Made by a program: the position numbers and the translations under genes
In this document: positions 2,301 to 63,201 of the stretch, piece after piece
Numbering within the stretch: the stretch's first letter is position 1
Layout of the letters: every line of letters starts with the position of its first letter
The notes under the pieces: generated by a model
The model's input: the letters and a program-made list of their open reading frames with translations, nothing else
The model's database searches: none
What the model was told of the DNA's origin: nothing
Assembly (NCBI RefSeq): GCF_023715895.1
Contig: NZ_JAMBOO010000001.1
Coordinates: forward strand, 1-64,000
Origin: Domibacillus indicus
Lineage (GTDB): Bacteria > Bacillota > Bacilli > Bacillales > Domibacillaceae
DNA: 64,000 nucleotides
Direction of reading: 5' to 3'

Positions 2301-2504
2301 AAAAAAAGACGGCGAATCCCAATCGTGCCGTCGTTGTAATAACATATGTTTTGAACCCGCTCTACAGCAGGTGGGTGCCCTGTTCTGGGCGTTGCAAGTC
2401 CCCGCAAAGGGCATGTGCGCTGTCCAAAAACTCAGACTCCCTAACATATAGTGTTCGGTCAAAACAGAATGTGTAACTAACGTACACATCAGGATCCGCC
2501 TCAT
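2301..2504 (-). ncRNA. ssrS: 6S RNA (SsrS / BsrA type)
   Basis: About 204 nt between aspS and tcdA, the locus of 6S-1 RNA in B. subtilis. The ends are set by a consensus-like promoter just upstream and by a terminator (stem GACGGC/GCCGTC at 2308-2313 and 2327-2332, then seven U at 2301-2307). The inside has the long irregular hairpin with complementary flanks around a central bubble (GGGCACCC… / …GCGCACATGCCC) expected of 6S RNA. The known role is to bind housekeeping RNA polymerase as an open-promoter mimic, with pRNA synthesis releasing it. The identity rests on locus, size and shape; a covariance search would settle it. Confidence 0.85.
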
Positions 2505-5671: not shown

Positions 5672-5945
5672 AAAAAAACTTCCATCCCTGCACTGCGCGC
5701 AGGGACGGAAGTTTTCCGCGGTACCACCCTCGTTAAAGCCGAAGCTTTCCCTTTTTTGATAACGCAATACGCGGTTTTTCCTACTATTGTTTCAGAAAAA
5801 CGCCTCAGAAGTGTCTGTTCATGAAGGTGCACCGTAAATGCTCTCAGTCGCGGCATTTTTCTCTGTCCGGGCATGGGCTTCACTACTTTTCTTCGTCTAT
5901 GGCTTTTCATATGTTCTTTTATGATGGACTGGATATCCAGCCGAT
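5672..5945 (-). promoter_or_regulatory. T-box riboswitch of hisS-aspS
   Basis: The T-box sequence GAGGGTGGTACCGCGG lies at 5716-5731 (minus strand). It overlaps a long terminator hairpin, 5675-5691 with 5699-5715, followed by seven U. About 200 nt of Stem I/II sequence precedes it, with AGTAG- and CAGAGA-type motifs. Uncharged tRNA binding should favour the antiterminator. A candidate histidine specifier CAC lies at 5811-5813 in a GAACAGACAC context, but I could not prove the fold. Confidence 0.92.
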
Positions 5946-40878: not shown

Positions 40879-40981
40879 TTCTGCACCTCCCTGTTTACTC
40901 AGACTCGCCACTTAACAGGTGATCGATCGATACTTAAAACCTGCTGTGCGCGGTTGTAGCACGGGTGCTACAAACAATAAC
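40879..40981 (-). promoter_or_regulatory. L21 ribosomal protein leader
   Basis: About 100-nt leader ahead of rplU with a perfect 8-bp hairpin (40955-40962 with 40965-40972) and a second pairing between CAGGT-type segments around the ATCGATCGAT palindrome. It sits where B. subtilis has the L21 leader (Rfam). It probably gives autoregulation by L21. Confidence 0.75.
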
Positions 40982-48691: not shown

Positions 48692-49199
48692 TTAAGTACA
48701 ATCAATAAATATATTACCTTTAAAATAAGCTAGCAATGTACCCATCGAAATAAATGGAGCGAAAGGGACAGGTTCTTTTCTTTTTATTATTCCAAAAAAT
48801 AAAAGAATAAGACTTATGACAGCTCCAAAGAAACAAGCAAGGAAAAAAGCTAGCAGAATCAATTTAAATCCTAATGTAAATCCAAGCAGCGCAAACAATT
48901 TAATATCTCCTCCGCCAATTCCTCCCCTTGATAACATAGCAAATGCTGCTAATACACCAAAAGTGAATAAAGCGGCTAATAAAGAGTTTCCCCAAGATTC
49001 TAGGGGCTTAATAAGCCATATAGGAAATATGATGCTTCCAAAAACCAGTAAGATTTTATTTGGAATAAGCATATAAACAAGATCTGAAACAATAAGAATA
49101 CTAAGTAACGAAATAAGCAGAAAGGCGTATAAAAAAGATAACGACCAGCCAAAAGTTTGATATGCAAATACAAAAAGCAGTGGTGTAACGAGCTCCATT
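48692..49199 (-). pseudogene. comC: comC 3' part (prepilin peptidase catalytic domain)
   Basis: This is the C-terminal 168 codons plus one base of a split prepilin peptidase (A24). It holds both aspartate motifs (VSDLVYMLIPN and GGGDIKLF) and five or more membrane segments. It lacks the N-terminal Cys4 methyltransferase domain, found at 50668-50894. The ATG at 49198 is an internal codon made to look like a start by the insertion; no ribosome site is present. ComC processes the ComG pseudopilins needed for DNA uptake. Confidence 0.88.
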
Positions 49200-49311
49200 T
49201 TGAACTACCACCCACTTACCTGACGGTTGAAGTGAAGGATTCCTGGGCAAGGGGACCTTCGACCCCCAGTAATCAGGCTAACCCCGTATTCCAACGGTTT
49301 TATGACCAATC
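49184..49311 (-). ncRNA. Predicted omega RNA with guide
   Basis: The sequence after the tnpB stop to the element end has GC hairpins (CTGGG…CCCAG, GGGGTC…) and ends in TTCAA, which is the usual scaffold-guide junction. The guide would be the first ~16-20 nt of comC beyond the element (49199 downward). Inferred from family behaviour; not shown by sequence alone. Confidence 0.5.
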
Positions 49312-50535
49312 TTAAATAGACTGAAGTGAAAGAAGCCGAAGGGCTTCTTTTTTAATATTCAGGCTCGCATTCAGGTCCCGGTCGTGACACACACCGCAGG
49401 ATGGACACTCCCACACCCGGACAGCAAGACTCTTTACATCCTTATGCTGGTGGCCACACCCGGAACAGAGCTGGCTTGATGGGAAGAACGGATCGACTTT
49501 TATAATCGTCCGTCCGTACCACTTTGCTTTGTAGGCGAGCATTTCGTTGAATCTCGACCATGACGCATCGTGAATCCGCTTGCTTAGTTTTTTGTTTTGG
49601 ACGAGATTCTTCACTGACAAATTCTCCACTGCGATCACTTGGTTTTCATGAACGAGCCTGGTCGTCAGCTTGTGAAGAAAATCCTCTCTTGTGTGTTTGA
49701 TTTTTTCGTGCAGTTTAGCAATCTGGGCTTTATTTTTTTTCCACGATTTCGAACCTTCTTTTTTACGTGCAAACGCACGCTGAAGAAAGGCTAGTCGCTT
49801 TTCGTATTTTTGGTAGTATTTCGGGTTGGCAATGGATTCACCATTGGAGAGCACGGCAAACTCTTTTAATCCCAGATCAATGCCAACGGCATCCTTGGTG
49901 CTTGGTTTGTACGGGGAATAAGGCATCTCGCAAATGAACGAAATAGAATACCGGCCGGTGCTGCTTCGGCGTACGGTGACACGCTTAATGTCACCTTCAA
50001 TGTTTCGGGACTTGGAAAAACGAATCCAGCCGAGTTTCGGCAGCTGAACGCGATTGTCTACGATTTTAATATTGTGATTTGTCATTTTGGTTGTGTAGCT
50101 TTGGACTGGGTTTTTCTTGCTTTTGAATGTTGGATGGCCCTTAAAGTCATACGCCGTTGGCGTGTAGCCTTCTGCACATTTTTTAACGGCTCGTTTTTTT
50201 AATTCTTTTTTCGGCTGATCCTTATATTTTTTGAATCCTTCGTACTGATATTCGATGCTTGCCTGAAGAGCAATACTGTCAGAATCAGACAACCATTTGA
50301 ACGTTTCCTTTAGCCCAGGGAGGAGCTTTTTAGCGGCTGTTTCTGTATACCGTTTTTTTGTTTTTTCAAAACTCTTGATGTTTTCATTTAATATATAATT
50401 GTAGACAAACCGGCAGCAGCCGATCGTTTGGTTAATCAGTTGTTTTTGCTCGTCACTTGGATGGATTTTAAACCGAAATGCTTTAAAATGAAGGTTCTTT
50501 TTTTCATCTTTTTTGGTTTTTATCATCTTCCTCAC
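49312..50535 (-). CDS. tnpB: RNA-guided endonuclease TnpB
   Basis: 407 aa. RuvC-like nuclease with all catalytic residues visible: D220 in GIDLG, E304 in AVENLS, and the DRD at 385-387 in HDRDLNASLNI. The zinc finger C357/C360/C377/C380 (CSGC…CPSC) is intact, and the N-terminal HTH_OrfB-type region is present. In the family it cuts DNA matching the omega RNA guide next to a TAM. It looks active rather than decayed. The longest ATG start is kept; MIKTKK is an alternative. Confidence 0.95.
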   Translation of the reverse strand: MRKMIKTKKDEKKNLHFKAFRFKIHPSDEQKQLINQTIGCCRFVYNYILNENIKSFEKTKKRYTETAAKKLLPGLKETFKWLSDSDSIALQASIEYQYEGFKKYKDQPKKELKKRAVKKCAEGYTPTAYDFKGHPTFKSKKNPVQSYTTKMTNHNIKIVDNRVQLPKLGWIRFSKSRNIEGDIKRVTVRRSSTGRYSISFICEMPYSPYKPSTKDAVGIDLGLKEFAVLSNGESIANPKYYQKYEKRLAFLQRAFARKKEGSKSWKKNKAQIAKLHEKIKHTREDFLHKLTTRLVHENQVIAVENLSVKNLVQNKKLSKRIHDASWSRFNEMLAYKAKWYGRTIIKVDPFFPSSQLCSGCGHQHKDVKSLAVRVWECPSCGVCHDRDLNASLNIKKEALRLLSLQSI

Positions 50536-50622
50536 CCTTGAACACTTGTTCTATACCTAATTATACCATTTTAGCCATAGAGCGTTCAAGGAAAAAGAAT
50601 GACTGAAAGAGCAACGATTCAT

Positions 50623-50650
50623 CCCCCACTTAGCAAGCTTGAAGTGGGGG
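50623..50650 (-). repeat. Left-end subterminal palindrome of the IS element
   Basis: A 9-bp stem CCCCCACTT/AAGTGGGGG (50623-50631 with 50642-50650) with a 10-nt loop. IS200/IS605 elements carry such hairpins at the ends as TnpA recognition sites. Confidence 0.7.
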
Positions 50651-50667
50651 TGTTCTCGCCAAAGATG

Positions 50668-50894
50668 ATAAAATAAAGAGGAAAAATACTCTTTTTACAC
50701 TTTCTACACCTGCCTCTTAACAGGATATAGGATATAAGAGGCAATAAGTCAGCAAAAGTTAAGCGATACTGACAGTGAGTGCATGTGCTTGGCGGGTAAA
50801 GAATTGACTTTCCGGCTGGAACACGCATCCCTATTACATTATAAAACGAAGTGAAAACAAGTCCATATAGAAAAATCACCAAAGAATTCGCCAT
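50668..50894 (-). pseudogene. comC: comC 5' part (Cys4 domain)
   Basis: 75 codons plus two bases: one membrane segment, then the STCTHC…CRKC cysteine motif of the prepilin peptidase methyltransferase domain, ending CCT CTT TAT TTT AT at the insertion. The frame then runs on into IS sequence and stops after 16 more codons. Joined to 48692-49199 it gives a 244-aa protein, close to the 248-aa B. subtilis ComC. Confidence 0.88.
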
Positions 50895-63001: not shown

Positions 63002-63201
63002 TCAAATAAAAATCATTTTAGCAATAGGATGAAATCATTGTACAAAGACTAAGAACGTGACATCCTGTCACAACGTCTTCGTGACCCACTTCCTATGGGC
63101 CTCAAATAAAAATTATTTTAGCAACAGGTTGAAATCATTGTATAAAGACTAAGAACGTGGCGTCTTGTTACAACATCCTCATCACCCACTTCCTGTGGGC
63201 G
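63002..63201 (+). repeat. Two tandem 100-bp repeats, candidate structured RNA
   Basis: Exact 100-bp period: 63002-63101 and 63102-63201, 86 of 100 positions the same by my count. A hairpin in each, GTGACA-loop-TGTCAC and GTGGCG-loop-TGTTAC, keeps every pair on the plus strand (three differences turn Watson-Crick pairs into G-U). A second hairpin, CCCA…TGGG, follows. The differences would not pair on the minus strand, so the plus strand is likely the transcript. It ends 37 bp before the gene at 63239. Confidence 0.7.

What the first reader, a model, noticed from the sequence alone, without database searches (positions are those of the whole stretch)
49180..50672. TnpB appears programmed to cut the uninterrupted comC allele
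TnpB keeps all its nuclease and zinc residues. In this family the omega RNA guide is the host sequence just past the right end, here AATGGAGCTCGTT… of comC, and the TAM is the target pentamer, here TTTAT. In the empty allele TTTAT lies directly before that guide sequence, so TnpB would recognise any intact comC (excised copies, sister chromosomes, or DNA taken up by the cell). This would hold the element in place and keep competence off.
Basis: inference. Interest (0 to 1): 0.75.

Follow-up and report, generated by a model that had tools for sequence, protein, structure and literature searches.

The report
tnpB element matches empty comC site
A small mobile DNA element has landed in a DNA-uptake gene, and the guide RNA it should make matches the uninterrupted form of that gene exactly; this is the known self-preservation trick of such elements, and it is probably not what keeps DNA uptake off here, because a second uptake gene is also broken.

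Summary
A 1,468-bp tnpB-only element (49200-50667, minus strand) splits comC of a Domibacillus. A same-genus genome (G008) has the uninterrupted comC, reading ...CTTTATTTTAT|AATGGAGCTCGTTACACCAC..., so TTTAT sits directly before a 20/20 match to the predicted guide. Of 11 insertion sites of this family with a located unoccupied allele, 8 have TTTAT directly before the start of the guide and 3 do not. TnpB keeps D220, E304, D387 and the zinc cysteines. tnpB has dN/dS 0.12; the right-end non-coding bases are about three times less diverse than third codon positions.

The larger interpretation is only partly supported. A Y1-transposase search of the assembly finds only a 31-residue remnant, and there is no uninterrupted comC target, so the guide has nothing evident to cut there. 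Competence is probably off anyway: comGC is interrupted by a different insert of about 3.4 kb, and G008 has comGC cut at the same place with comC intact. Verdict: new member of a known kind (donor-site-targeting TnpB) with a notable address. A TnpB-enforced competence lock is possible but unlikely.

The parts
49200..50667 (-). tnpB-only IS200/IS605-family element, 1,468 bp, inserted in comC
   Evidence: Exact borders from BLASTN to the uninterrupted locus in G008; same ends in 17 full copies of the genome
50668..50672 (-). TTTAT, target pentamer and predicted TAM
   Evidence: Present directly before the guide in the uninterrupted comC of G008 and before the left end of all 17 full copies
50623..50650 (-). 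left-end hairpin CCCCCACTTC...AAGTGGGGG
   Evidence: Read from sequence; conserved in the copies
50560..50589 (-). promoter-like site TTGAAC-18-TATAAT upstream of tnpB, inside the element
   Evidence: Consensus scan: 5 promoter-like sites in the region against a shuffle mean of 6.0, so weak evidence
49312..50535 (-). tnpB, 407 aa, RuvC residues D220, E304, D387 and four zinc-ribbon cysteines kept
   Evidence: Pfam; NCBIfam NF038281 521.7 bits over cut-off 425; alignment to ISDra2 TnpB chains 8h1j and 8bf8; dN/dS 0.124 over 325 pairs of 26 copies
49200..49311 (-). non-coding part of the predicted omega RNA scaffold (its 5' end, not determined, probably lies in the 3' end of tnpB)
   Evidence: Mean diversity 0.036 against 0.120 at third codon positions in 26 copies; predicted to fold, without a shuffle control; no RNA data
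49180..49199 (-). predicted guide AATGGAGCTCGTTACACCAC, 5' end of the comC downstream part
   Evidence: 0 of 20 mismatches to G008 comC directly after TTTAT
50668..50894 (-). comC upstream part (A24_N domain)
   Evidence: Pfam PF06750; aligned to G008 comC
48692..49199 (-). comC downstream part (A24 peptidase domain); 1-nt deletion near its 3' end relative to G008
   Evidence: Pfam PF01478; alignments. That both catalytic aspartates lie in this half is recalled, not tested
49328..49351 (+). terminator-like hairpin on the strand opposite to tnpB, at the 3' end of tnpB
   Evidence: Consensus scan

Best explanation
This is a tnpA-less (IS1341-type, name recalled) member of the IS200/IS605 family that inserted 3' of TTTAT in comC. 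Transcription through tnpB and out of the right end would give an omega RNA whose 3' end is comC sequence (established for relatives; not shown here). TnpB with this RNA would recognise TTTAT followed by AATGGAGCTCGT..., that is, only a comC allele without the element, and cut it; repair from an occupied copy would restore the element (retention or homing). Shown here: element borders, the TTTAT/guide arrangement on natural alleles, intact catalytic residues, constraint on protein and right-end sequence. Inferred: RNA production, cutting, repair. In the present genome the system looks loaded but idle: no complete Y1 transposase found to make empty sites and no intact comC to cut. Loss of competence is, by inference, a side effect, shared with an independent break in comGC.
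For: Uninterrupted comC in G008 joins TTTAT to the exact guide. 8 of 11 sites (13 of 16 alleles, comC included) with a located unoccupied relative have TTTAT directly before the guide start. 17 of 17 full copies share the ends and carry different guides. TnpB is over the NCBIfam IS200_TnpB cut-off and keeps the catalytic residues. dN/dS 0.124, and right-end non-coding diversity 0.036 against 0.120 at third positions. Private changes of the comC copy in tnpB are 7 synonymous and 2 non-synonymous. ISDra2 TnpB cleaves the joint that excision would leave, and its TAM equals the TnpA target (PMC8612924, passages). TnpB gene-drive behaviour on plasmids is reported in PMC11870625 (abstract, introduction and passages). 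No match to TTTAT-comC with up to 3 mismatches in the genome except the occupied locus itself, which has TTCAA in the TAM place (reversed-pattern control 0).
Against: No RNA or activity data. 3 of 11 sites deviate (TTTAA in G008 at site L164; TTTGTGT at L008 and TTCGAT at L010 in G061), which may be later divergence. 4 of 17 copies in the genome have an internal stop or frameshift. Changes private to single copies show weaker constraint: tnpB ratio 0.31, and the right-end non-coding bases change at 0.59 of the synonymous rate. The comC copy carries two C-to-T changes in its right-end hairpin relative to consensus, both still pairing as G-U in the consensus fold. Covariation is nearly absent because the copies are too alike.
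Confidence: 0.75

Rival explanations
1. One reading: TnpB actively holds the element in comC and so keeps competence off.
For: Perfect TTTAT-guide match to intact comC; ComK, ComEC, ComGA and ComGB frames are open in the genome, so part of the pathway is kept.
Against: comGC is interrupted by a different insert of about 3.4 kb. G008 has intact comC but interrupted comGC. Only a remnant of a Y1 transposase. comC insertion found in 1 of 60 genomes with a match.
Confidence: 0.06
2. TnpB or its omega RNA from this copy is inactive, a fossil; the perfect match is only what every such insertion leaves behind.
For: 27 of 59 TnpB orthologues were active in one screen (PMC10278001 section 14); 12 amino-acid differences from the family consensus and two changes in the terminal hairpin; no complete Y1 transposase; private changes over all 26 copies show weaker constraint, ratio 0.31 against 0.12.
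Against: Catalytic and zinc residues intact; the comC copy's private changes are mostly synonymous, 7 to 2; right-end region conserved; 12 other full copies without stops or frameshifts could supply protein in trans.
Confidence: 0.35
3. TnpB has been turned into an RNA-guided regulator (TldR-like, recalled) that binds rather than cuts.
For: Stand-alone tnpB without tnpA.
Against: All three RuvC residues kept; multicopy, with full element ends at many unrelated sites; guides are insertion-site flanks.
Confidence: 0.03
4. comC is not fully lost: the downstream peptidase half is still made from the ATG within the guide sequence, so the insertion has little effect.
For: An open frame of 168 aa starts with ATG at 49198 and holds the A24 peptidase domain; 5 synonymous and 1 non-synonymous difference from G008 in its first 483 nt.
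Against: The N-terminal part is separated; 1-nt deletion changes the C-terminus; upstream part has 0 synonymous and 4 non-synonymous differences from G008, though these cannot be assigned to a lineage.
Confidence: 0.1

Closest known systems
ISDra2 TnpB and reRNA (Deinococcus radiodurans; PMC8612924, passages seen)
   Same: Near relative by sequence (phmmer E 1e-93 to chain 8h1j); guide past the right end; TAM equals the insertion target; empty donor site is the substrate
   Different: TTTAT instead of TTGAT; this element carries no tnpA; activity not tested
TnpB-mediated transposon retention in Geobacillus stearothermophilus (Meers et al. 2023, recalled; not among the papers listed)
   Same: TnpB cuts the scarless excised site and recombination restores the element
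   Different: Here no complete Y1 transposase gene was found, so excision is not evident
TnpB gene drive of IS elements on plasmids (PMC11870625; abstract, introduction, passages seen)
   Same: TnpB targets element-free copies of its own insertion site
   Different: Chromosomal gene, not a multicopy plasmid; no pool of empty targets shown
Mobile elements that interrupt competence genes (prophage in comYC, comK and others, PMC4774983, passages seen; transposable elements in comEC of Piscirickettsia, PMC12955456, search listing only)
   Same: A mobile element breaks a gene of the transformation machinery; comGC in this genome is interrupted in a way that resembles this
   Different: The prophage insertions are site-specific and recurrent; the comC insertion was seen once

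Membership tests
IS200/IS605-family RNA-guided TnpB | TnpB sequence over curated cut-off | tested here: met
   NF038281 521.7 bits, cut-off 425
IS200/IS605-family RNA-guided TnpB | RuvC D-E-D and zinc-ribbon cysteines | tested here: met
   D220, E304, D387, C357/C360/C377/C380
IS200/IS605-family RNA-guided TnpB | Insertion 3' of a fixed short target that serves as TAM, no target duplication | tested here: met
   TTTAT at 17 of 17 copies; at 8 of 11 unoccupied sites TTTAT joins the guide start with no extra base, 3 deviate. That TTTAT works as TAM is inferred
IS200/IS605-family RNA-guided TnpB | Omega RNA from the right end with guide from the flank | tested here: inconclusive
   Right-end non-coding region conserved and foldable without shuffle control; Rfam has no match there; no RNA data
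IS200/IS605-family RNA-guided TnpB | Guided cleavage | not testable with these tools
   Needs a bench assay
IS605 proper (tnpA plus tnpB) | tnpA in the element | tested here: not met
   The 1,468-bp element holds only tnpB; one 31-residue Y1_Tnp remnant in the whole assembly
Competence-disabling mobile element (comYC-prophage type) | Recurrent, targeted insertion in a competence gene | tested here: not met
   59 of 59 other genomes with a match have an uninterrupted frame; copies of this family sit at many unrelated TTTAT sites
TldR (nuclease-dead TnpB regulator, recalled) | Degraded RuvC site | tested here: not met
   RuvC residues kept

The most novel reading that the evidence does not exclude
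A self-enforcing competence knock-out: when DNA carrying comC::tnpB enters a comC-positive relative, TnpB cuts the resident intact comC and the break is repaired from the interrupted copy. A transformation-null allele would thus spread by homing through close Domibacillus, shielding itself and the other mobile elements from curing by transformation. The G008 comC, a perfect target in a close relative, would be one such victim-to-be.
Probability: 0.05. Interest if true: 0.8.

Novelty: new member of a known kind. Interest (0 to 1): 0.4.

Why it matters
It gives a natural test of the donor-site rule: occupied and unoccupied alleles of one family at 11 sites in closely related genomes. It shows protein and right-end constraint in a genome where no complete Y1 transposase was found. 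It also places a guided nuclease against a competence gene in a genome where a second insert broke the competence pilus, which links TnpB biology with the conflict between transformation and mobile elements.

Tried and rejected
RNA covariation: 30 right ends (28 distinct) are too alike to test pairs. Promoter scan: promoter-like sites are not above shuffles, so the TTGAAC/TATAAT pair is only a lead. Looking for a vector: of 7 plasmid records with a match none covers 80% of the element; the best has 67% identity over 35%. Looking for the transposase: only Pfam Y1_Tnp was searched. None of the 16 genus matches lies within about 1.5 kb of a close tnpB; three have a tnpB of 37-42% identity beside them, the nearest to ours (42%) in G004. 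Some of these loci are cut by contig ends. Regulator (TldR) reading rejected on intact RuvC residues. Order of the comC and comGC breaks: not resolved, because G000 is nearer to G008 at the comC locus and nearer to G061 at the comG locus.

Sites left out of the unoccupied-site count: of 22 copies whose flanks were searched (which scored 40 candidates per genome, so some may be missed), 9 gave no other genome with both flanks. L013 was left out because G008 holds a 54-nt mini-element there and G061 the full copy. L003 and L170 were left out because 810 nt (L003) or about 560-615 nt (L170) present in the other genomes are missing beside the element; on their guide side TTTAT is seen in G061 (L003) and G000 (L170), TTCAT and TTTAG in G008. 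The deviating sites L164, L010 and L008 are counted.

Literature: the listings (15 of 50 papers; 10 of 385) show no title or abstract start that links TnpB with comC or a competence gene. Two listed papers hold both 'TnpB' and 'natural transformation' in their text (PMC12857756, PMC12477157); I did not read them.

Full report
What is there. The window lies in a Domibacillus genome: the same-genus genome G001 is identical at its comC locus to D. indicus (100% over 3,492 nt). The gene order looks like that of B. subtilis (valS-folC-comC-spoIIB-like-maf-radC-mreB; names recalled, only comC was tested). comC, on the minus strand, is cut into an N-terminal part (Pfam A24_N) and a C-terminal part (Pfam Peptidase_A24) by an element with one gene, tnpB. 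BLASTN of the window against the uninterrupted locus of another Domibacillus genome, G008, gives 97.8% over 9,982 nt on one side, ending at window position 50668, and 97.7% over 9,920 nt on the other, ending at 49199; the two adjoin in G008, so the element is exactly 49200-50667.

Is the guide prediction right? In G008 comC is a single frame (251 aa stop to stop) and reads CTTTATTTTAT followed at once by AATGGAGCTCGTTACACCAC, identical over 20 nt to the sequence past the right end of the element. The insertion therefore lies directly 3' of TTTAT and duplicated nothing. Among 107 comC loci that could be aligned at this position (109 tried; some genomes are in twice) only G008 has TTTAT there; the next best has 1 of 16 guide mismatches but CCGTT in the TAM place. 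The genome itself has no other such target with up to 3 mismatches; the only hit is the occupied locus, where the right end gives TTCAA in place of TTTAT.

Is it a rule of this family? The genome holds 17 full-length copies of the element (93-100% identical TnpB), 13 without an internal stop or frameshift. Every copy begins after TTTAT and ends in GTTCAA, with a different flank. A right-end pattern with up to 3 mismatches has 26 matches in the assembly (control 0): 17 full copies, 4 mini-elements of 54-56 nt and 5 without a left end in the fetched stretch. For the 16 other copies of the window's genome and 6 of the same-species genome G061 I searched the separate flanks in four genomes and read the candidate unoccupied alleles. 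Together with comC, 11 sites had a located unoccupied allele. At 8 sites (13 alleles) TTTAT lies directly before the guide start; the guide itself is identical at comC and differs by a few bases in some others. At 3 sites (3 alleles) it does not (TTTAA, TTTGTGT, TTCGAT). The sites left out of this count are told under Tried and rejected.

Is the machinery intact? TnpB scores 521.7 bits against NCBIfam IS200_TnpB (cut-off 425) and aligns over nearly its whole length with ISDra2 TnpB; D191, E278 and D361 of that enzyme correspond to D220, E304 and D387 here. Over 26 copies from four genomes dN/dS is 0.124 (325 pairs), and mean diversity is 0.032, 0.022 and 0.120 at codon positions 1, 2 and 3 but 0.036 in the 112 non-coding bases at the right end, as expected for a functional RNA. 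Against this, changes private to one copy show a weaker ratio in tnpB, 0.31, and the right-end bases change at 0.59 of the synonymous rate. Those of the comC copy are 7 synonymous and 2 non-synonymous; they may predate the insertion. The comC copy has two C-to-T changes in the terminal hairpin, both still able to pair as G-U.

How it would work. One studied TnpB trims its own mRNA to an omega RNA (AmaTnpB; PMC10278001, section 11), and ISDra2 TnpB cuts the joint that excision would leave, with the insertion target as TAM (PMC8612924, passages). A gene-drive effect on plasmids is also reported (PMC11870625, abstract, introduction and passages). Applied here, TnpB with this guide would cut comC alleles that lack the element; no such target was found in this genome. 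Activity is not certain: 27 of 59 orthologues were active in one screen (PMC10278001, section 14).

Why the competence part does not follow. First, the Y1_Tnp search of the assembly finds only a 31-residue remnant; the same-species genome G061 has the same remnant and one TnpA frame with a stop. With no transposase, no excised comC is expected. The assembly has 180 contigs, so a missed copy is possible. Second, DNA uptake itself needs comC. Third, the comG operon of this genome is broken as well: comGC stops after about 50 of 106 residues at an insert of about 3.4 kb that carries a flagellin-like gene and a 271-aa frame without a Pfam match. The remnant scores 72.1 bits on the ComGC model, under its cut-off of 75, and covers positions 2-45 of 84, while G061 has the whole gene (106.4 bits). 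G008, with intact comC, has comGC cut at the same place by an insert whose first bases resemble those in G000, and a split comGB. ComK, ComEC, ComGA and ComGB frames are open in the window's genome. So the pathway carries at least two independent breaks and the TnpB one is not needed to keep it off. Insertions in competence genes, read as protecting mobile elements from removal by transformation, are known (PMC4774983, passages), and comGC here resembles such a case; comC looks like a chance TTTAT hit: 59 of 59 other genomes with a match have an uninterrupted frame.

Verdict. The mechanism is that of a known family, with a new target. The competence lock is possible only in relatives with an otherwise working pathway, and I give it a low probability.

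Noticed in passing
L215 (G000:C115:393500-403500), insert between about 6098 and 2734, minus strand; L220 from about 13560 on: comGC is interrupted at the same position in G000 and G008 by inserts with similar first bases (GCATACAAA[C/A]ACAAGTAA) but different cargo; in G000 an insert of about 3.4 kb with a flagellin-like gene and no integrase among the frames seen. Looks like an attachment site in comGC.
   Followed up: partly
L191 (G061:C2:1153500-1173400): The same-species genome has a cluster of about 17 kb that looks like type IV pilus genes, with its own prepilin peptidase (about 52% identical to G008 ComC), where the window and G008 have only comC, while flanking DNA is 94-99% identical: a locus swap.
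   Followed up: partly
L245, L233, L234, L247 (G000) and L207 (G008): Mini-elements of 54-56 nt made of only the two ends, inserted 3' of TTTAT; at the L013 site G008 has a mini-element where G000 and G061 have a tnpB copy.
   Followed up: partly
L003 site against L211 and L213; L170 site against L210 and L212: At these copies 810 nt (L003) or about 560-615 nt (L170) of DNA present in other genomes is missing beside the element, up to a second TTTAT (TTCAT or TTTAG in G008), suggesting deletions next to the element.
   Followed up: no
window about 48703: Single-base deletion near the 3' end of comC relative to G008 changes the last residues; a possible sign of decay.
   Followed up: yes
G000: Besides this family the genome has at least 12 more tnpB genes or pieces at 37-50% identity, so several guided-nuclease families seem to share the cell.
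   Followed up: no
window 5698-5908 (-), 2312-2498 (-), 40891-40965 (-), 63033-63099 and 63133-63199 (+): Rfam matches: T-box leader, 6S RNA, L21 leader and two neighbouring Bacillaceae-1 RNAs.
   Followed up: no
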